Origin: an uncultured Bacteroidota bacterium | Lineage (GTDB): Bacteria > Bacteroidota > Bacteroidia > Chitinophagales > Chitinophagaceae | NCBI GenBank assembly: GCA_946479055.1 | Contig: CAMLEX010000164.1 | Span: 1-8,677, forward strand | Length of the DNA stretch: 8,677 bases | Reading direction: 5' to 3' | Part shown: one piece after another, positions 1,285 to 8,634 of the stretch | How positions within the stretch are numbered: the stretch's first letter is position 1 | How the letters are laid out: every line of letters begins with the position of its first letter | The notes under the pieces: generated by a model | What the model was told of the DNA's origin: nothing | Databases searched by the model: none | Seen by the model: only the letters and a program-made list of their open reading frames with translations | Translations under genes and position numbers: made by a program

Positions 1285-2193
1285 TTATAGTGGGATTAGT
1301 TCTACGTTGAGGGTGGTGGTTTGGCCGAGGATGACGGCGACGGCGGTGACTTGGAGGGTTTGGAAGCCGGGTTTGGTGAATGTGACGGTGTAGATGCCGG
1401 GTACGGGAATTTTTAAACTGTATGTTCCGTTTATTAATGTAAGCGTGAAATAGAATTTAATTCCATCTTTTGTTGCTTTTACTTCCACATCGGCGATACC
1501 CGCATGTGTGATTGAGTGTGTGACTGTACCTGCTATTTGTGTTGCTATGCTGCCGATGTCTACAATTTCTCTTACTGCCTGATAACCGTTGAATAGGATT
1601 TGATTTGTTTTTTTAAATGCAAGCATTAACTTATCCAATTTCTTTAAAATCTTATCTGCATCTTTAAAAAGAACAGGGACTGAATCTGTAACACCTTTGC
1701 GCTGACTTATAGCTGTACGTGGTGCAGGTGCTTTTGTTTGAAAACTTGTAATGAGTGCCAGAAAATTTGTAAGGTCTAAGGCTACAACACCATAAGGTGC
1801 CAATGATGCAATGTTTGCATTTGCTTTACCATGCACAAAGGTTGAAAACTCGGCAAGCTCATCATCTTTTTTACTGCGCAGCAATGTGATATTAATATCC
1901 ATTTGCTCTTTTAATATGGTATTGTTTGTATCGACTGCGAAACTGAATACTTTACCTGCGATGGCCAATGTATCCTGTGTAAGATTTTCTTTTACTTCGT
2001 CTTTGTCGGTTGTGATACCAGTAGTAAGTGTTTTTTGTTTGAGATTTGCATCCTGTAACTCATCCCGCTTAACTATTAATTCATCTTTTGTTGTATCGAT
2101 TGCTGGAATGGATGCTGTTTCTGCTGCTGTTGCTTCGATGAAGGAGATGGTATCTGATACCATGCTTAGTTTGGCGATTTCTCTGTCGCGCAT
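1285..2193 (-). CDS. Helical-region protein with C-terminal beta-sandwich module
   Basis: 302 residues, function unknown. Residues 1-220 are predicted by eye to be almost wholly helical and rich in Asp, Lys, Thr and Ala (for example TTDKDEVKENLTQDTL and DADKILKKLDKLMLAFKKT), with a more hydrophobic stretch at about 129-150 (ASLAPYGVVALDLTNFLALI). Residues 221-302 resemble a carboxypeptidase-regulatory-like or CnaB-type beta-sandwich: IAGTVTHS, IADVEVKATKDG, then GTYSLKIPVPGIYTVTFTKPGF and TTTLNVELIPL. No signal peptide or lipobox is visible at the N-terminus, although such modules usually occur in exported proteins. Architecture and length match the 314-residue protein at 7690-8634, and the C-terminal modules align (SLKIPVPGIYTVTF against SLPIPAGIYPSILF), so the two are probably distant paralogues. 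The last ~40 codons use mostly C-ending codons, unlike the rest. It lies downstream of the 21-bp array. A structural, adhesive or effector role are all possible; none is shown. Confidence 0.85.
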   Translation of the reverse strand: MRDREIAKLSMVSDTISFIEATAAETASIPAIDTTKDELIVKRDELQDANLKQKTLTTGITTDKDEVKENLTQDTLAIAGKVFSFAVDTNNTILKEQMDINITLLRSKKDDELAEFSTFVHGKANANIASLAPYGVVALDLTNFLALITSFQTKAPAPRTAISQRKGVTDSVPVLFKDADKILKKLDKLMLAFKKTNQILFNGYQAVREIVDIGSIATQIAGTVTHSITHAGIADVEVKATKDGIKFYFTLTLINGTYSLKIPVPGIYTVTFTKPGFQTLQVTAVAVILGQTTTLNVELIPL

Positions 2194-2235
2194 AGTTGAT
2201 AAGATTTAATGTTTAAAAAATGGTTTGTGAATTTT

Positions 2236-2276
2236 CGTGGCGCTAAAGTAAAAACTGATCCTTATTTTTTAAGAAA
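2236..2276 (-). promoter_or_regulatory. Possible promoter of the 302-residue gene
   Basis: On the minus strand, tactttag (plus-strand ctaaagta, 2243-2250) is close to the Bacteroidota -7 consensus TAnnTTTG. A tttc at 2273-2276, about the right distance upstream, is one base off the -33 TTTG box. Transcription would start near 2236, leaving a leader of about 40 bases before ATG at 2193. The match is imperfect in both boxes, so this is a weak call. The first units of the 21-bp array overlap the upstream box. Confidence 0.3.
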
Positions 2277-2544
2277 CCGCATTTACTTTTTTATTTACCG
2301 TGTTTATCTTTTTTATTACCGGATTATTTATTTTATTAACCGTATTTATTTTTTTGCTGCCGGAATGTTTTTGCAGGCAACCGCATTATTTATGACAGAT
2401 ACCATAAGTATTTTCTCTTATGCTGTGTTTGTTTGTTAGCCGCCCAAGTTTATTTTTTTTGTAGCCGGGCTATGTTTGGCACGCAACATATCCTGTTTGT
2501 AGGTTACCGGGTTTGTTTTTAGGGATACCGTGGGGTGTAGGCGC
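2273..2544. repeat. Degenerate 21-bp tandem array with phased T-tracts
   Basis: About 13 units, best described as a 4-base lead, CCG (or CC/CTG/ACA variants), then a T-rich half: roughly accgNatttattttttt on the plus strand. The CCG or its equivalent falls at 2277, 2298, 2319, 2340, 2360, 2381, 2402, 2423, 2444, 2465, 2486, 2507 and 2528. That is steps of 21 bases with a single step of 20. T-runs lie in the same phase, ending near 2292, 2314, 2334, 2355, 2372, 2414, 2433, 2460, 2477, 2498 and 2520. Units diverge strongly, so the spacing is better kept than the sequence. Twenty-one bases equal two helical turns, so the A/T-tracts should add up to a bend and every CCG core would face the same side of the helix. 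The array lies just upstream of the 302-residue gene and runs into the first arm of the REP repeats. A role in regulation or DNA architecture is an inference. Confidence 0.7.
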
Positions 2545-2653
2545 AAGTCTGGGTCGTTTATAGTTGAAAATTCATTAAGTTAGAAGACTTGCGCCAGCGT
2601 TTCCGTTTATAGATGAAAAATCATTTAGTTAGAAGACTTGCGCCAGCGCTTCC
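2540..2653. repeat. REP-like repeats 3' of the RAYT gene
   Basis: Two direct units of 49 bases (2556-2604 and 2605-2653) differ at only a few positions. Each carries agacttgcgccagcg (2585-2599 and 2634-2648), preceded by an AT-rich half beginning gtttatag. An inverted copy of the core, ggcgcaagtct (2540-2550), forms an 11-base perfect stem with 2585-2595. A partial third unit (gtttt) touches the stop codon of the transposase gene at 2657. The same core flanks the gene on its other side, as expected for the cognate substrates of a REP-associated transposase. Confidence 0.8.
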
Positions 2654-2656
2654 GTT

Positions 2657-3208
2657 TTAAATATGTTCTATTTCTATCATTCCTTTTTGTTCTGTATAAT
2701 AATCTATTGCACTGCTGTATTTCCAATCTGTTGGTTCGTTTACAAATCCTGACCGTACCGGATTATTATGCAGGTAGGCTAGTTTTTGCTGTACTACGTT
2801 TTCGCTTTCTACATAAATTGGGTGATTGTCTTGTTTCCAAAATTGATGATGTTTGTTGTTGCTGTTTGCCTGACCAGCTTCGCTAAAAATATTCAGCATC
2901 CATTCTCTTCTGCTTTCTTTTTCATTACACATAATAGCCGTTATTATTTTTGATGCTGTGTATTTTTTCATATCCCGCATGATAGCTTCCAATTTGTTTT
3001 CTCCTTTTTTACTTATTATCATGTGTACATGGTTTGTCATTATTACCCAAGCATGTATTACTAATCCTTTTTCTTTTTGACAATGCCCCCAGCTATCAAG
3101 CAATATGTTTCTGTACTCATCTCTTGTAAAAACATCTACCCACCCTACTACTGCATAACTGATAAAATATTTTAGATCGGGATCTATGAATTTGTACTTG
3201 TTGCCCAT
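2657..3208 (-). CDS. REP-associated tyrosine transposase (RAYT, Y1/IS200-like fold)
   Basis: 183 residues, full length for the family. RAYTs are single-domain HUH nucleases of the Y1 transposase superfamily that cut and rejoin single-stranded REP hairpins, and are usually single-copy domesticated genes. The HUH motif is H60-V61-H62 in WVIMTNHVHMII. The catalytic tyrosine is probably Y145 in KLAYLHNNPVRSGF, matching the position of Y115 in the E. coli enzyme (DYIYINPV). Other family marks are FWKQDNHPIYV (about 123-133) and the closing DWKYSSAIDYY (161-171). The frame is intact with no stop or shift. It starts at ATG 3208 after an A-rich leader without Shine-Dalgarno. REP-like palindromes lie on both sides (2540-2653 and 3277-3352), so gene and substrates form one unit. 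No accessory tnpB-like gene is present. Confidence 0.92.
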   Translation of the reverse strand: MGNKYKFIDPDLKYFISYAVVGWVDVFTRDEYRNILLDSWGHCQKEKGLVIHAWVIMTNHVHMIISKKGENKLEAIMRDMKKYTASKIITAIMCNEKESRREWMLNIFSEAGQANSNNKHHQFWKQDNHPIYVESENVVQQKLAYLHNNPVRSGFVNEPTDWKYSSAIDYYTEQKGMIEIEHI

Positions 3209-3215
3209 TTATTTT

Positions 3216-3240
3216 TTTGAGCAAATTTATTTTATCAAAG
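3216..3240 (-). promoter_or_regulatory. Possible promoter of the RAYT gene
   Basis: The minus strand reads taaatttg at 3229-3222, a full match to the Bacteroidota -7 box TAnnTTTG. A TTTG at 3239-3236 is too close (6 bases) to be the usual -33 box, and no other TTTG stands at about 20 bases, so only half of the promoter is convincing. The leader to ATG at 3208 would be very short. Confidence 0.35.
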
Positions 3241-3276
3241 AACTTAAGACTTACGTAGTACTACTGAATTTTTAAT

Positions 3277-3352
3277 GCTGGCGCAAGTCTGTGACTTGTG
3301 CCTATCTCTATTTTATCTTTTTACTGGCACAAGTGGAACACTTGCGCCAGCG
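3277..3352. repeat. REP-like double hairpin 5' of the RAYT gene
   Basis: gctggcgcaagt (3277-3288) pairs perfectly with acttgcgccagc (3340-3351). Inside it, acttgtgcc (3294-3302) pairs with ggcacaagt (3326-3334). The two stems are separated by a five-base mismatch on each side and closed by a 23-base T-rich loop. The outer arms carry the same core as the repeats at 2540-2653, once inverted (3277-3290) and once direct (3340-3352). The imperfect long stem is typical of REP elements recognised by a RAYT. Confidence 0.82.
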
Positions 3353-3459: not shown

Positions 3460-6309
3460 CTATTGCCAGTGGTTGGTGAGGGTGCGGGTTTGGATTTCTT
3501 GGAGGGTGGAGAGGGAATCTTTTTTCATTTTGGTGTTCCAGGAGAGGCAGATGGGGCAGGTGGGTGAGCAGGTGCCGGAGGGATCGAGGGGGTAGCCGGT
3601 GGTGATGGATTTGAGTTTTGCGGGGATGCCTTGTGATAGCCAGATGGGGGGTGGTGCGGATTTTAGGTAGTGGTTGAAGAATTGTTGCATTCTTATATTA
3701 AAATCATCTGCCGATTTACCACTTACATTATGATTACCTTCTTCATACTCCAGCATCCAAACTTTCTTTTCAAGACGACGAAGTGCTGTAAAGAATTCAA
3801 TTGCATTTGGGAATGGACAAATTTCATCATGTGTTGTATGAAACATCAAGAGCGGTGATGTTACCTTATCTGCCAATAATACTGACGAATTCTTTATATA
3901 TAAATCGGGTCTTTGCCACAACGTAGCCCCTACTCGGGTTTGTCCTTCTTCATATATTGATTGAAGGCTACTTCCGTTTCCTTTTAAACTTCCATATCCA
4001 CTTATGAAGTTAGAAATACCAGATGCGGAACAAATTGCAGAAAACATTTTTGTATGAGTCGCGATATAATTAGCTTGAATACCTCCAAAACTTATACCCT
4101 GGAAACCCATTTTCTTTACATCAACAAAAGGAATTTTAGATAAATAGTTGACAGAAGATTTGACGACTTTTAGAACAGATTCACCAACATCTCCATTTTT
4201 AAAATGAACGTCAGGAGCAAAAACTAAATATCCATTGCTCACATACCAAGGAATATTAAGCCAGCCGCCAGATGGCGCTGGTTTTAAATATGCGTTTAAG
4301 CCGTTTGATTGTATTTCATAAACATAAAATATAATTGGATACTTTTTAGTTGGATCAAAATTTTCAGGCTTGTACAGAAGACCCTGAATAGTAGTTCCAT
4401 CAGATGATTTCCAAGAGTGTAATTCAGTTTTGAACCAATTATATTCTCTTTCAGGATAAATGTTACTTAAAGGAATAAATGTTTTAAAATCCGTTGTTGA
4501 AAAAAAGTTTGGTGATTCGGAAGAACTCATACGCCTTACTATATATACTTCTGCATCTCTGGCTTTAATTGGATTGAAGTTTACTCCATCTGGAGCTCTC
4601 TTAGCAGCAATAGATGCGTAATAAAAATACTTACCCATCGACAATATTGTGGGATCACCTGAGACGCTTAAATTCTTACTACTAAAACCATTGTCTTTTG
4701 TTTTTAGGTTGTATACACTCAAAATGATTTTCTCATTCACGGAAAAGGGGTATTTAAAACCATCCCGAATCACTTCAAAAAAAAGATTATGTTTTAGACC
4801 ATAGCCATTTGTTACATTAACTGGAGCAGTTTGACAAGTGGGATCGACCTGCCAGATGTCATGCTGGTCATAAAGCAATAGAGCCTTATCCCCTTTTATC
4901 CAACCTGCGGGACGATAATAACTTCTTGATGCGTCCACATGGTCATCTTCATAGACTGACCAATTAGTTTTTATATCTTTTGTAATATTTTTAGTTATCC
5001 CAGATAATATTTCATAACTAAAATAATTCCTGGCGTCTGCATTATAGTATATTATAAACCTTCCTTCAGCAGACAAATAGGGTTGAGAACTTTTTATTTG
5101 ATCTAAGTTTTTCCTTTGACCATCTTTGGTAGAAATTAAATAGACCGGTTTTTGAAGAGCCGGGTTCCAGTTCGATTCACTTATATCTATACCGCCGCCC
5201 ATTTTACGAGAAAGAGTAATCAAACCATTATTAGTGGTATCTAAATACGCCTGGCTTAATGCCTCATTCTGTTCTTCAATCCTAATAATTCTATGATCAG
5301 CAATATTTAAAATGGCTGTATATCGTTGTGGTGATTGATTTTTCAATTGATAAGATTGTAAACTTACATCTGCATGACTCCAGACATTTACTTTAACAGC
5401 ATCGGCTTTAGATTTAGGATAACTCATTTCTCTTAAACTAATAAATAGTCGTTCCCCATCATTACTGAATTTTTGGATACTTCCTAAAACCAAGCCACTA
5501 TCGATATTTACAGTTTGATTATCCACAAGTAAAACTGCTTTATCCATTCCTGTTTTATAATGCCATATTGAACTCCCTTTTCGGTTGCCTGTTTTCTGAT
5601 CAATTATAAATGCAACTTGTGAATTATTTTTATCAAAGATTACGTTACTCAGATTTATCTCTTTCTCATTGATTACTTCCGACCAAATCGTATTTACATT
5701 ATTATCCCCCATAGTTATCAAATTCAGAAACAAGGCTGACGTTCCATCTTTATTTGATTCTGTAAGCAATACACATACTTTCCCGTCATCACTGACATAA
5801 TAACCTTTCACCGATTTGAAATACTTCTGTTCCCCGCTTTTTAGATTACGTATTACTAACTCCTTCTCTACATTGTTAGTTTGATAAATTATAAACTGCC
5901 CATCTCCTTCCTTCGGAACTATATATGAACCGACTTGCGTAATATACTGCACAGAAGAACTATCCAAATTGACAATTCCTAAGCTATCGGTAGATTTAGT
6001 AAAAACCGCGAATCTACTATCCTGAGTAATTTGTGCATTTGCAACACCGGGGATTTCTAACTTCCATCCGGCGTTTGAAGATTGAAGAATCAATTTAGTA
6101 TTGAACTCAAACAATGTTCCTTCCCGTATAGAATAGACAAGATATTTGCCATCATTACTTATTGCAGCAGCTTCAACACTTGGCCATTTTCTGAAAACAC
6201 TTGTATCAAGGGCGGGCTTTTGGGCATAACAAACTGCTGAATAATATAAAGCAACTAATATTAAAAGTAACCTTGGCATTCTTCTATTGTTTATGAAATT
6301 AAATCGCAT
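3460..6309 (-). CDS. Exported S9 family serine peptidase (prolyl oligopeptidase type)
   Basis: 949 residues. S9 peptidases cleave short peptides; a beta-propeller gates the active site of a C-terminal alpha/beta hydrolase. A signal peptide is visible (MPRLLLILVALYYSAVCYA, likely cut before Q30), so it acts in the periplasm or envelope. Residues 40-600 show repeated propeller-like strands (AAISNDGKYLVYS, FSNDGERLFISL, YLSAEGRFIIYY). The hydrolase spans about 630-885 with a complete triad: S740 in GISFGG, D828 in HTTHDE, H860 in GNHNV. KKYPIIFYVY and YLVFAPDVHF precede the nucleophile. A tail after 905 contains C914-x3-C918-x2-C921 (TCSPTCPIC). The start at 6309 overlaps the upstream stop by one base (TGATG), indicating translational coupling with the thioredoxin gene; M11 is an alternative start that keeps a good signal peptide. 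The last ~65 codons switch to C-ending codons. Substrate is unknown. The family call is sure, the cellular role is not. Confidence 0.93.
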   Translation of the reverse strand: MRFNFINNRRMPRLLLILVALYYSAVCYAQKPALDTSVFRKWPSVEAAAISNDGKYLVYSIREGTLFEFNTKLILQSSNAGWKLEIPGVANAQITQDSRFAVFTKSTDSLGIVNLDSSSVQYITQVGSYIVPKEGDGQFIIYQTNNVEKELVIRNLKSGEQKYFKSVKGYYVSDDGKVCVLLTESNKDGTSALFLNLITMGDNNVNTIWSEVINEKEINLSNVIFDKNNSQVAFIIDQKTGNRKGSSIWHYKTGMDKAVLLVDNQTVNIDSGLVLGSIQKFSNDGERLFISLREMSYPKSKADAVKVNVWSHADVSLQSYQLKNQSPQRYTAILNIADHRIIRIEEQNEALSQAYLDTTNNGLITLSRKMGGGIDISESNWNPALQKPVYLISTKDGQRKNLDQIKSSQPYLSAEGRFIIYYNADARNYFSYEILSGITKNITKDIKTNWSVYEDDHVDASRSYYRPAGWIKGDKALLLYDQHDIWQVDPTCQTAPVNVTNGYGLKHNLFFEVIRDGFKYPFSVNEKIILSVYNLKTKDNGFSSKNLSVSGDPTILSMGKYFYYASIAAKRAPDGVNFNPIKARDAEVYIVRRMSSSESPNFFSTTDFKTFIPLSNIYPEREYNWFKTELHSWKSSDGTTIQGLLYKPENFDPTKKYPIIFYVYEIQSNGLNAYLKPAPSGGWLNIPWYVSNGYLVFAPDVHFKNGDVGESVLKVVKSSVNYLSKIPFVDVKKMGFQGISFGGIQANYIATHTKMFSAICSASGISNFISGYGSLKGNGSSLQSIYEEGQTRVGATLWQRPDLYIKNSSVLLADKVTSPLLMFHTTHDEICPFPNAIEFFTALRRLEKKVWMLEYEEGNHNVSGKSADDFNIRMQQFFNHYLKSAPPPIWLSQGIPAKLKSITTGYPLDPSGTCSPTCPICLSWNTKMKKDSLSTLQEIQTRTLTNHWQ

Positions 6310-7619
6310 CAGTCCTTAGGCCAGGTCGGCTCGCCCTTTCGCATCTTTTCCAGTGCTTCTTTGAATACTTTATCTGGGGTTGTATTATTCTTAATCGAGT
6401 TCTCCTCCTCTTGCTTAACTGCTTTCTCTTCCCAAGCTATTGCTTCAGCAATACGACCGACTTTATATAAAAGGTTTGCATAAGTATCTAGAATGGCTGG
6501 GTCTGTTGTATTTGTCTTAAGGATCTCCATCCATTCTATTCCCTTCTTAAGAATCAAAGGATCATTAGAATGCTCAAATATTACCTGCCATATCATATCG
6601 TTAGTAAAATTTCTTCCTATACCAACGGTATCAAGTCCATACTTTTCAATTTTGATAACCTGATAATTTGCAAGCTGTACCCAATCCTTTTTATAAGAGT
6701 ACCATCTAATTTGGGCATCCAACACAATTCGTTCTGCATAGCCTGCACTGTATTTTCTTTTAATAACAGATTTTAATCTTGCCCATTTTGGCTTTTGCAC
6801 GGCTGGTATATCATCCTTCCATATTTTGGAATTTATTTCTTCTTTTGAAATAATATAGTCTACCAAGCCTTGAGAAATTCCCTTTCTGTTCATTATTTTA
6901 TCAACCGAGTCTGAATGTTTATAAAACAGATTAAAACCTTTTTCTTTTGAACTTTGAATATAAGACCCAATAAATGTGATATTTTCTTTAGTGTAAAGAC
7001 TATCATCTGCCATTTTGTATAAATAATTTTGCAGATAATCCTGTCCTATTGTAATAGCCAATTCTTTTTGCTTTAATTCCCGTAAAGATTTTGCCATGTA
7101 AGGCATATAGGAATAGTTTTTCTTTCCTATTTGATAGTTTCGCACCAGTGTATATATCTGTTTTTCTGGATCGTGAGCAACAGTACCCACGGCAATGAAT
7201 GGATTTACTCCTTTTAAACCTATACCCTGGTGAACAATTATACCATCCGGTGAAAAAAATAAATAGGTTGGGAAAACCGTCACATTATATTCCTTCATTA
7301 TAGAGTGGGCATTTTGATACCAACTTTTCACTTGCTCATTATCCCGTTTCGTAGTATCCATTTGGATTTTCACCGAAATAAATTTGTCATTAAACAATTT
7401 GCCGACCTTTTCATTTGTATACACTTCTTTATCCATATACTTACAAGGCCCACACCAAGTGGCGTAACAATCAACAAACAAATACTTGTTCTCCGCTTTT
7501 GCTTTACCTTTTACTTGCTCCCATGTTAAGCCTTGTTCGAAATGAATTCCTTTGCTTGTATCTGTTTGTGCAGATAGAAATATAGGAAGGAAAAGAAGTA
7601 ATGATAACAATGTCTTCAT
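6309..7619 (-). CDS. Exported thioredoxin-fold protein with long helical C-terminal region
   Basis: 436 residues. A short signal peptide (MKTLLSLLLFLPIFLSA, cut before Q18) sends it across the inner membrane. The thioredoxin domain covers about 28-145: NKYLFVDCYATWCGPCKYM with the redox pair C56/C59, then a helical insertion, and the cis-proline P117 in TVFPTYLFF. C51 is the only other cysteine I see. Such proteins reduce or isomerise disulfides in the periplasm. The remaining ~290 residues are mostly helical and end in a TPR-like pair (ILDTYANLLYKVGRIAEAIAWEEKAV, about 380-405), probably a partner- or substrate-binding part. The stop shares one base with the start of the S9 peptidase gene (TGATG), so both are made from one transcript. 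The gene lies 70 bases after the 314-residue gene, with a hairpin but no clear promoter between them. Confidence 0.9.
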   Translation of the reverse strand: MKTLLSLLLFLPIFLSAQTDTSKGIHFEQGLTWEQVKGKAKAENKYLFVDCYATWCGPCKYMDKEVYTNEKVGKLFNDKFISVKIQMDTTKRDNEQVKSWYQNAHSIMKEYNVTVFPTYLFFSPDGIIVHQGIGLKGVNPFIAVGTVAHDPEKQIYTLVRNYQIGKKNYSYMPYMAKSLRELKQKELAITIGQDYLQNYLYKMADDSLYTKENITFIGSYIQSSKEKGFNLFYKHSDSVDKIMNRKGISQGLVDYIISKEEINSKIWKDDIPAVQKPKWARLKSVIKRKYSAGYAERIVLDAQIRWYSYKKDWVQLANYQVIKIEKYGLDTVGIGRNFTNDMIWQVIFEHSNDPLILKKGIEWMEILKTNTTDPAILDTYANLLYKVGRIAEAIAWEEKAVKQEEENSIKNNTTPDKVFKEALEKMRKGEPTWPKD

Positions 7620-7689: not shown

Positions 7690-8634
7690 TTAAGGTGCTG
7701 GTGTTAATGTTATATTCAACGTTTTCATTACTCCGGGTTGTACTTCTGTATTTAGTTCCTGGTGAGTGTTGAAGTCAGGACATTCGAATAAGATGGATGG
7801 ATAGATGCCCGCTGGTATTGGTAAACTGAATCTTCCATCTTCGTCGCTTACTGTGAAGTAAGTTGTTCCGAATACTGTTACGCTTACTGGTACTTGCATT
7901 GGTAAATTGGTTGCACCATTTTTTATCAACCCTTTTATTCCTGATGTGCCGGGACCGGCTACGGTTAACAACACTTGATCAAAGGTGAATAGTTTTTTTA
8001 CGGCTTCATTTGTTTTAAATATTTCCTGACCATCGAGAAACATACTCATCAGCTTTGTATGCAGATCATTGTTGGCAGTGATTTTTGCTTGAGTTTCTAT
8101 TTCGTCATTCTGCCCAGCATTTAAAAAGTCATTATACAATGTATCATACTCAGTTTTTGCTGTTGTGAATGTTGCAGCGAATGCAACTGGCATATTTCCA
8201 CCGGCTGTGAGATCAGCAGTGTTTGCCAATATAAAAGTATTTCCATCTAACATCAACCTTTGCGCAGCTGACCAATCATCCTGCGCAGCTTTTCTATAAT
8301 GTTGTTGCCCTGCTGCATCGAGTTTTATTTCCAACTGATCTGCAGGATACGCTTCGGTGATGTATCTTTTTGCACGTTGCCAAAGAGCCATTCCTTCTGT
8401 TGCTTTGTTTTTTAAATTAACTCTCAGCGTTCTTGAATCTTCGACACGTTGTTCTTCATCAGGCAATGCTTCGGCTGCATCAACTTCTGCTAACCGTGCA
8501 GTAACATAACCTGCGATATATTTTGATTTGAATGCGGTGAAGTCGGCGAGGAAATCTGTAACGCTGTTCCAACCAAGACGACAGATTGCATAAAGTTCTT
8601 GTTGAGTGCTGTTGTACTTTTTGATGATTGCCAT
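7690..8634 (-). CDS. Helical-region protein with C-terminal beta-sandwich module
   Basis: 314 residues, function unknown. Residues 1-222 look almost wholly helical and rich in Ala, Asp, Glu and Thr: QQELYAICRLGWNSVTDFLADF (10-31), an Ala-rich charged helix at 46-66, AKRYITEAYPADQLEIKLD (88-106), and FLDGQEIFKTNEAVKKLFTFD (199-219). Residues 225-314 resemble a carboxypeptidase-regulatory-like or CnaB-type beta-sandwich: GIKGLIKNGATNLPMQVPVS, YFTVSDEDGRFSLPIPAGIY, MKTLNITLTPAP. No signal peptide is visible. The arrangement repeats that of the gene at 1285-2193, but the helical parts share little obvious sequence. It starts at ATG 8634 after atatatat with no Shine-Dalgarno; only 43 bases upstream are in the window. 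It may share a transcript with the thioredoxin gene 70 bases downstream. Unlike its relative, its 3' end shows no run of C-ending codons. Confidence 0.87.
   Translation of the reverse strand: MAIIKKYNSTQQELYAICRLGWNSVTDFLADFTAFKSKYIAGYVTARLAEVDAAEALPDEEQRVEDSRTLRVNLKNKATEGMALWQRAKRYITEAYPADQLEIKLDAAGQQHYRKAAQDDWSAAQRLMLDGNTFILANTADLTAGGNMPVAFAATFTTAKTEYDTLYNDFLNAGQNDEIETQAKITANNDLHTKLMSMFLDGQEIFKTNEAVKKLFTFDQVLLTVAGPGTSGIKGLIKNGATNLPMQVPVSVTVFGTTYFTVSDEDGRFSLPIPAGIYPSILFECPDFNTHQELNTEVQPGVMKTLNITLTPAP

What the first reader, a model, noticed from the sequence alone, without database searches (positions are those of the whole stretch)
2273..2544. A 21-bp-period DNA array whose spacing is better kept than its sequence
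Seen: CCG or close variants recur at 13 positions in steps of 21 (one step of 20), with T-tracts in the same phase, over 270 bases. Known: A/T-tracts phased with the helical repeat bend DNA, and 21 bases is two turns of 10.5. Inference: the array is a curved or multi-site DNA structure, with every ACCG core on the same helix face, directly upstream of a gene of unknown function. The period continues across the 20-base step and past any stop codon, so the selected unit is DNA and not a heptad protein. I do not recognise it as a named repeat family.
Basis: partly seen in the sequence, partly recalled or inferred. Interest (0 to 1): 0.7.

Follow-up and report, generated by a model that had tools for sequence, protein, structure and literature searches.

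The report
Fixed-pitch DNA arrays beside helical-protein genes
Bacteria of one large group carry, usually just in front of several families of uncharacterised genes, strings of DNA repeats whose letters differ from place to place but whose spacing is nearly always exactly 21 (sometimes 22) bases, two turns of the double helix, which points to a DNA element that is kept for its geometry rather than its sequence.

Summary
The array is real: 13 units at 2277-2528, steps of 21 with one of 20; lag-21 identity 0.474 against 0.295 ± 0.028 in 2000 shuffles, maximum 0.410. It is one of many. It lies upstream of the minus-strand gene 1285-2193 (helical domain plus transthyretin-like domain). In related Bacteroidota, 43 of 59 loci of this family and 29 of 42 of a second (window 7690-8634) have a 21/22-bp array upstream, against 13 of 250 gap-matched control genes. 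A third family shows it in 6 of 7 loci; a fourth is suggestive. Units of different loci are no more alike than shuffled ones, yet 654 of 672 fitted steps are exactly 21. Six second-family arrays are 22 bp and cluster in the protein tree, not by genome. The arrays are not coding, not unusually curved and show no RNA fold. In one orthologous pair a ~5-bp block differs in most units at constant length. Best reading: a non-coding, same-face, multi-site cis-platform selected for two-turn spacing. Its reader and any regulatory effect are inferred. Nine literature searches found no description.

The parts
2273..2544 (.). non-coding array, 13 units of 21 bp (one step of 20), private unit AAtAAAtaCGGTaactaAAAA on the minus strand
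1285..2193 (-). family-1 gene, 302 aa: all-helical N-terminal domain (about residues 1-213) plus C-terminal transthyretin-like / CarboxypepD_reg domain (219-299); array lies about 80 bp upstream
   Evidence: Pfam PF13620 3.5e-12; AlphaFold2 pLDDT 93.6; relatives with arrays
2194..2272 (-). spacer between array and start codon, presumed to hold the promoter (no exact TAnnTTTG seen in it)
   Evidence: by position; in relatives, 12 of the 13 arrayed loci (of 66) that have a TAnnTTTG within 300 bp have one between array and ATG
7690..8634 (-). family-2 gene, 314 aa, with a weak CarboxypepD_reg match at its C-terminus (below Pfam's cut-off) and an N-terminal part read as helical by eye; its upstream region is cut off by the window's end
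   Evidence: 29 of 42 relatives have a 21- or 22-bp array upstream

Best explanation
The feature belongs to a class of non-coding cis-elements in Bacteroidota: arrays of about 6-18 units at a pitch of 21 bp (22 in one part of family 2), two turns of B-DNA, placed mostly upstream of genes for small proteins of unknown function with an N-terminal domain modelled as helical in family 1 and read as helical by eye in the others, often followed by a beta-sandwich. SHOWN: the class, its linkage to at least three gene families, its non-coding nature, the fixed pitch, and locus-private sequences. INFERRED: the two-turn pitch puts equivalent contacts of every unit on one face of the helix, so that a protein can assemble side by side along the array by many weak contacts, as BvgA does with 22-bp spacing at a promoter, and thereby sets transcription of the adjacent gene. 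Selection then holds pitch and self-similarity, while the unit sequence drifts in concert. The adjacent protein as its own reader is possible but unproven: median pI is 7.0 (family 1) and 5.1 (family 2), and in the one orthologous pair inspected the unit changed while the protein stayed 91% identical over 179 residues.
For: Linkage: z>7 array of 20-22 bp upstream in 43 of 59 family-1 loci (window included) and 29 of 42 family-2 loci, against 13 of 250 gap-matched control genes, 8 of those in G141, and 14 of 961 control genes without gap matching; third family 6 of 7, the seventh having only about 70 bp upstream; phylum-wide family-1 sample 7 of 11 new loci. Pitch: 654 of 672 steps exactly 21, 11 of 20, 6 of 22, 1 of 19, at mean unit identity 0.75. 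In 1.84 Mb of sampled background, 13 of 18 non-coding arrays have period 21; 0.4 Mb from G001, G002 and G004, where only C-terminal family-1 matches were found, hold none. No blastn similarity upstream but same pitch beside related proteins: L016/L017 (67% protein identity), L022/L039 (68%), L031/L122 (58%), and L144/L146 (79%, both 22 bp). Pitch 22 is clustered on the protein tree (3 changes, shuffled mean 5.7, as low in 2 of 500) while G087, G100 and G112 hold both 21 and 22. Concerted change at constant length: L171/L174. Position: proximal end to ATG median 157 bp in 66 loci; TTG-N17-21-TAnnTTTG in the last 150 bp in 6 of 95 loci against 0.68 in shuffles. Precedent for a 22-bp same-face array of weak sites: PMC7250471 (passages).
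Against: No binding protein, transcript or regulatory effect is shown. Array-to-gene distance varies from 1 to 732 bp, and 6 family-1 loci and 1 family-2 locus have the array downstream instead, which is loose for an operator. Arrays also occur beside genes of other kinds, in G141 above all. 8 of 59 and 9 of 42 loci have no array by the test used. Unit profiles show no general dyad symmetry (7 of 61 at p<0.05), so a symmetric dimer site as in BvgA is not indicated. Small gaps that are not multiples of 21 do occur inside arrays between relatives: L154/L175 2 and 6 bp, L137/L143 three of 2 bp, L021/L035 four of 2 bp, L015/L016 eight of 1-8 bp (gap opening -3). Loci are related by descent, so Fisher values overstate independence, and step counts lean towards 21 because arrays were found by constant lag.
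Confidence: 0.5

Rival explanations
1. Passive minisatellites: arrays arise by slippage or unequal exchange, the pitch is inherited from a founding duplication, and there is no function.
For: Higher-order periods of 42 and 63 in many arrays, decay towards array ends seen by eye, concerted change and small gaps inside some arrays are typical of turnover by duplication and conversion.
Against: One period dominates among arrays with unrelated units and different base composition; linkage to three or four gene families against 13 of 250 controls; pitch retained where upstream similarity is no longer detectable.
Confidence: 0.2
2. Hypervariable contingency locus: changes of copy number upstream of the promoter switch the adjacent gene on and off, in steps that keep helical phase.
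For: Tandem repeats near a promoter are a known basis of phase variation (recalled); block duplications are visible as 42- and 63-bp periods.
Against: No gap of a whole unit within arrays in the close pairs aligned: L142/L145 no substitution in 246 aligned array bases and no array gap; L156/L159 69 mismatches and no gap over 357 bp with gap opening -4, two gaps of 2 bp in the array and one of 26 outside with -3; L171/L174 no net length change. No strain-level data were available.
Confidence: 0.12
3. A dedicated machinery writes the arrays with a fixed step of 21 or 22 bp whatever the sequence, as an integrase with a fixed stagger would; the pitch is a stamp of the writer and not of a reader.
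For: Would explain constant pitch with arbitrary sequence, the clustering of 22 on the protein tree, and replacement of unit sequence at constant length.
Against: No candidate enzyme is at hand; shared neighbours of arrays and genes shared by arrayed genomes were not searched for systematically.
Confidence: 0.12
4. Coding array: heptad-repeat peptides.
For: 39 of 61 arrays have at least one open frame of six.
Against: 36.6 of 61 are expected with permuted unit columns; codon-phased variability in 1 of 61; 22-bp arrays; stops in all six frames in 25 of 65, the window among them.
Confidence: 0.02
5. Curved DNA made by helically phased A/T-tracts.
For: The window unit is A/T-rich; in-phase repetition doubles the model bend over full shuffles (0.49 against 0.24 degrees per bp on average).
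Against: No excess over column-permuted arrays (mean 0.45, median p 0.42); array GC up to 0.63.
Confidence: 0.04

Closest known systems
BvgA~P multi-site promoter arrays (Pptx, Pfha of Bordetella; PMC7250471, passages found)
   Same: several weak, poorly conserved sites spaced at 22 bp, two helical turns, on one face of DNA upstream of a promoter
   Different: six head-to-head dimer sites of one regulator; here about 6-18 direct units, no general dyad symmetry, and a different sequence at each locus
Plasmid iterons (recalled)
   Same: direct repeats with a pitch near two helical turns
   Different: iterons share one sequence read by the plasmid's initiator; these arrays are private in sequence, sit beside several gene families, and some lie in contigs above 1 Mb (L013, L014, L028)
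TAACTGA heptamer repeats in Beggiatoaceae, Cyanobacteria and some Bacteroidetes (PMC4679880, passages found)
   Same: intergenic direct repeats enriched upstream of genes
   Different: one fixed 7-bp sequence, in the type genome mostly within several nucleotides of the start codon; here the sequence is free and the pitch fixed
BrickBuilt minisatellite/MITE of Porphyromonas gingivalis (PMC4596501, start of abstract and passages)
   Same: minisatellite in a Bacteroidetes genome
   Different: carried within a MITE; here every locus has its own unit (terminal inverted repeats were not looked for)
Helically phased A-tracts (PMC3940949, listing and start of abstract)
   Same: periodicity tied to the helix
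   Different: no general A/T phasing and no excess predicted bend

Membership tests
Phased A-tract curved DNA | A/T-tracts in helical phase giving bend beyond that expected for the repeat | tested here: not met
   6 of 61 arrays p<0.05 against column-permuted units; window p 0.92 (AA/TT) and 0.85 (bend)
Heptad-coding minisatellite | one frame open with codon-phased variation | tested here: not met
   codon-phased in 1 of 61 arrays; window array has stops in all six frames
Two-turn multi-site operator array (BvgA type) | sites spaced 21-22 bp, so on one helix face | tested here: met
   654 of 672 fitted steps of 21 bp; 22 bp in six family-2 loci; the helix face itself is inferred from the spacing
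Two-turn multi-site operator array (BvgA type) | dyad-symmetric site per unit | tested here: not met
   7 of 61 at p<0.05, median p 0.52; window p 0.81
Two-turn multi-site operator array (BvgA type) | bound by a regulator that controls the downstream promoter | not testable with these tools
   needs footprinting or a reporter
Plasmid iterons | shared repeat sequence beside a replication initiator gene | tested here: not met
   units unrelated between loci; the family-1 protein matches only CarboxypepD_reg in Pfam and no plasmid record by tblastn
CRISPR array | conserved repeats separated by unique spacers, with cas genes | tested here: inconclusive
   uninterrupted 21-bp units with drift, no Rfam match in the window; cas genes not searched for
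Known RNA family | Rfam match or conserved fold | tested here: not met
   0 Rfam matches in the window (relatives not scanned); no fold excess in 26 arrays tested of 65, either strand

The most novel reading that the evidence does not exclude
Bacteroidota possess an element class that is inherited as geometry: something reads, or writes, DNA self-similarity at a two-turn pitch independently of sequence, and marks with it a set of alike but separately named small helical-protein gene families. Pitch (21 or 22) goes with the protein lineage, while unit sequence is rewritten in concert.
Probability: 0.25. Interest if true: 0.95.

Novelty: categorically new. Interest (0 to 1): 0.82.

Why it matters
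Genomic elements are normally recognised by sequence; here spacing is conserved and sequence is not, so homology search does not see the class and, for the window, a standard repeat finder caught only part of it. It links at least three families of uncharacterised proteins in Bacteroidota to one cis-feature, which gives a first handle on what those genes have in common. It also poses a clean question: what reads or writes DNA at two-turn pitch without a shared sequence? Concerted changes between close relatives offer natural experiments.

Tried and rejected
Rejected with data: heptad coding, intrinsic curvature, RNA structure (Rfam, window only), dyad-symmetric unit, half-unit (10/11 bp) repetition of conservation (2 of 61), shared motif between loci.

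Limits: genomes behind the arrays are unnamed. Family-1 loci are those fetched by rank and place; lower-ranking matches were not fetched. Before counting I dropped repeat fetches and identical proteins (L114 and L116 among them), one N-terminal fragment (L019) and four family-2 loci that also hit the family-1 model (L134, L141, L153, L163). In the phylum-wide sample L189 and L193 repeat earlier loci; L194 and L195 (partial matches) showed no array and are counted as misses. Of the 65 fitted arrays, 61 were used (L114, L116 and fits at or below 0.6 identity dropped); these are family-1 and background arrays, not the 22-bp ones. L044 and L045 have fitted 21-bp arrays overlapping the called gene start but count as having none upstream. 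Background was chosen by position and is not free of family genes: L087 (G141) holds a family-2 gene and L230 a fourth-family gene, and much of it comes from contigs that carry family genes. Family 2 was not searched for in G001, G002 and G004. Curvature wedge parameters and the Bacteroidetes promoter motif were taken from memory. One search, with a laxer gap cost, places several small gaps inside arrays that one search did not.

Full report
OBSERVATION. The 13 units start at 2277, 2298, 2319, 2340 and, after one 20-bp step, 2360 to 2528 in steps of 21. Lag-21 identity over 2273-2544 is 0.474, against a mean of 0.295 (SD 0.028) and a maximum of 0.410 in 2000 dinucleotide-preserving shuffles. 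Tandem Repeats Finder reports only 2276-2355 of it. The gene that starts next to it is on the minus strand, 1285-2193, so the array is about 80 bp upstream of its start codon. The other neighbour is a REP-associated tyrosine transposase (2657-3208; NF047646).

THE GENE. The 302-aa product has a CarboxypepD_reg domain at 219-299 (PF13620, 3.5e-12). AlphaFold2 on 36 rows gives pLDDT 93.6 (pTM 0.55), an all-helical N-terminal part and a beta-sandwich. The top Foldseek matches of the whole model are transthyretin-like domains. The helical part alone (pLDDT 95.7) has no Foldseek match with E<=0.001. Protein search found 10 relatives. Only family 1 was modelled; that families 2 to 4 are helical is read from sequence by eye.

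THE CLASS. No genome is held for the window. A transposase search gave four named Bacteroidetes loci and so genome handles. Family 1 was then searched in 298 genomes of one order: 50 had a match at E<=1e-12, some by the C-terminal domain only. Of the first 20 loci (L013-L032), 15 have upstream a tandem array of period 21 or its multiples 42 and 63, each with its own unit sequence. The loci had been chosen by the protein, not by the array.

COUNTS. With one scan (best period 8-40 from lags P, 2P, 3P; z>7), 43 of 59 distinct family-1 loci, the window included, have a period of 20-22 within 1.2 kb upstream, and all 43 are 21. The second gene of this kind in the window (7690-8634) has relatives in 19 of 298 genomes; 29 of 42 such loci have an upstream array, 23 of 21 bp and 6 of 22 bp. 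Of 250 control genes of at least 200 aa with a gap of at least 250 bp upstream, 13 have one: 8 in G141, 2 in the sample of genomes without a family-1 match (whose only z>7 array is at L230, beside a fourth-family gene), and one each in G203, G149 and G226. Fisher values are 1e-27 and 4e-20, but the loci are related by descent, so these overstate independence. Without gap matching 14 of 961 control genes have one. At the slightly laxer cut: family 1, 43 upstream, 6 downstream, 2 upstream of another period, 8 none, of 59; family 2, 31 upstream, 1 downstream, 1 other, 9 none, of 42. A third family, met beside a background array of G141, has 21-bp arrays in 6 of 7 relatives (z 10.9-27.0); the seventh has only about 70 bp upstream held. 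A fourth shows it weakly (z 9.5 at the seed locus, 6.2, 5.5; one none). In a phylum-wide sample 7 of 11 new family-1 loci have 21 bp, one a weak 20, three none. One of these (L184) also carries a separate 16-bp array, and L163 (family 2), scored 14 by the scan, has a 7-bp repeat beside 21-bp material.

BACKGROUND. In about 1.84 Mb sampled by position, 18 non-coding arrays passed z>7 and 13 have period 21 (the others 8 and 17). They are densest in G141 (8 in 440 kb); G001, G002 and G004 (400 kb, only C-terminal family-1 matches found, family 2 not searched) have none. Neighbours of background arrays are mixed: some look like small helical proteins, others are ordinary enzymes. So the arrays are linked to these families but not confined to them.

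SPACING VERSUS SEQUENCE. A cyclic 21-position profile with indels was fitted to 65 arrays. In the 61 kept (50 family-1, 11 background), 654 of 672 steps are exactly 21, 11 are 20, 6 are 22 and 1 is 19, at a mean identity to the unit consensus of 0.75. Consensus units of different loci match no better than shuffled ones except for five pairs. Proteins 58-79% identical can have upstream regions without blastn similarity but arrays of the same pitch: L016/L017, L022/L039, L031/L122 (21) and L144/L146 (22). The 22-bp arrays fall in one part of the family-2 tree, mixed there with 21-bp ones (3 label changes against 5.7 in shuffles, as low in 2 of 500), while genomes G087, G100 and G112 hold both pitches. 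In L171/L174 (proteins 91% identical over 179 aa) the flanks on both sides are nearly identical and the array has the same total length. In nine consecutive unit rows, TATGA stands in 7 of L171 and none of L174, and TTCCT in 6 of L174 and none of L171; the row just outside holds TATGAG in both. Against this, other pairs show small gaps inside arrays: L154/L175 2 and 6 bp, L137/L143 three of 2, L021/L035 four of 2, L015/L016 eight of 1-8. In L142/L145 the 246 aligned array bases are identical.

WHAT IT IS NOT. Codon-phased variability: 1 of 61; open frames 39 of 61 against 36.6 expected; 25 of 65 arrays closed in all six frames. Curvature: no excess over column-permuted arrays. RNA fold: none of 26 arrays beyond z -2 on either strand. 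Dyad symmetry: 7 of 61. Conserved positions within the unit are mildly clustered (13 of 61 at p<0.05, mean neighbour correlation 0.11).

HOW IT MAY WORK. Proximal array ends lie a median of 157 bp from the ATG (66 loci, range 1-732). A Bacteroidetes-type promoter (motif recalled) is enriched in the last 150 bp (TTG-N17-21-TAnnTTTG in 6 of 95 loci against 0.68 in shuffles; TAnnTTTG alone 13 against 7.5). That suggests the array is mostly upstream of the promoter, though most loci show no such motif. A two-turn pitch puts all units on one helix face. The nearest worked-out case is BvgA~P at the Pptx promoter, with six weak sites at 22-bp spacing on one face (PMC7250471, passages). I therefore favour a cooperative multi-site platform in cis (confidence 0.5). 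Steps shown: existence, linkage, pitch, non-coding nature, private sequences. Steps inferred: a bound protein, cooperation, control of the gene. That the adjacent protein reads its own array is not favoured: median pI is 7.0 (family 1) and 5.1 (family 2), and the L171/L174 proteins differ little while the unit differs much.

NOVELTY. Nine literature searches showed no such class. I rate it categorically new as an element class defined by pitch and gene linkage, with the reservation that its mode of action may prove to be an extreme form of a known multi-site operator.

Noticed in passing
window 2541-3351: REP-associated tyrosine transposase (2657-3208, minus) flanked by copies of a GGCGCAAGTCT / AGACTTGCGCC repeat in both orientations, two of them in a 49-bp tandem repeat at 2555-2657.
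   Followed up: partly
window 3460-7619: Adjacent genes for an S9-type peptidase (949 aa) and a thioredoxin-like protein (436 aa) that meet at base 6309.
   Followed up: no
L040 3901 and L081 14321 (both G141): Two arrays at different places of one genome share 19 of 21 consensus positions; no family-1 gene was found beside the one in L081.
   Followed up: no
L142 / L145 (G087, G065): Upstream regions with no substitution over 786 aligned bases and one 3-bp gap in two genomes held as different species, which suggests recent transfer or very close genomes.
   Followed up: no
L184 about 380-600: A 16-bp tandem array (TCCATAACTCCTCTAC) lies about 0.9-1.1 kb upstream of a family-1 gene in addition to its 21-bp array.
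   Followed up: partly
L045 4581-4900: A 37-bp tandem array lies upstream of a family-1 gene whose 21-bp array overlaps the called gene start.
   Followed up: no
L251 (G092): Three separate 8-bp tandem arrays within 10 kb.
   Followed up: no
L019: A family-1 gene split over two reading frames (1492-2286 and 2178-2441), downstream of a 21-bp array; described only.
   Followed up: no
family 1: 21 of 62 family-1 rows match the model only over the helical domain (ending at position 211-236 of 300), so other or no C-terminal domains follow: the family is modular.
   Followed up: partly
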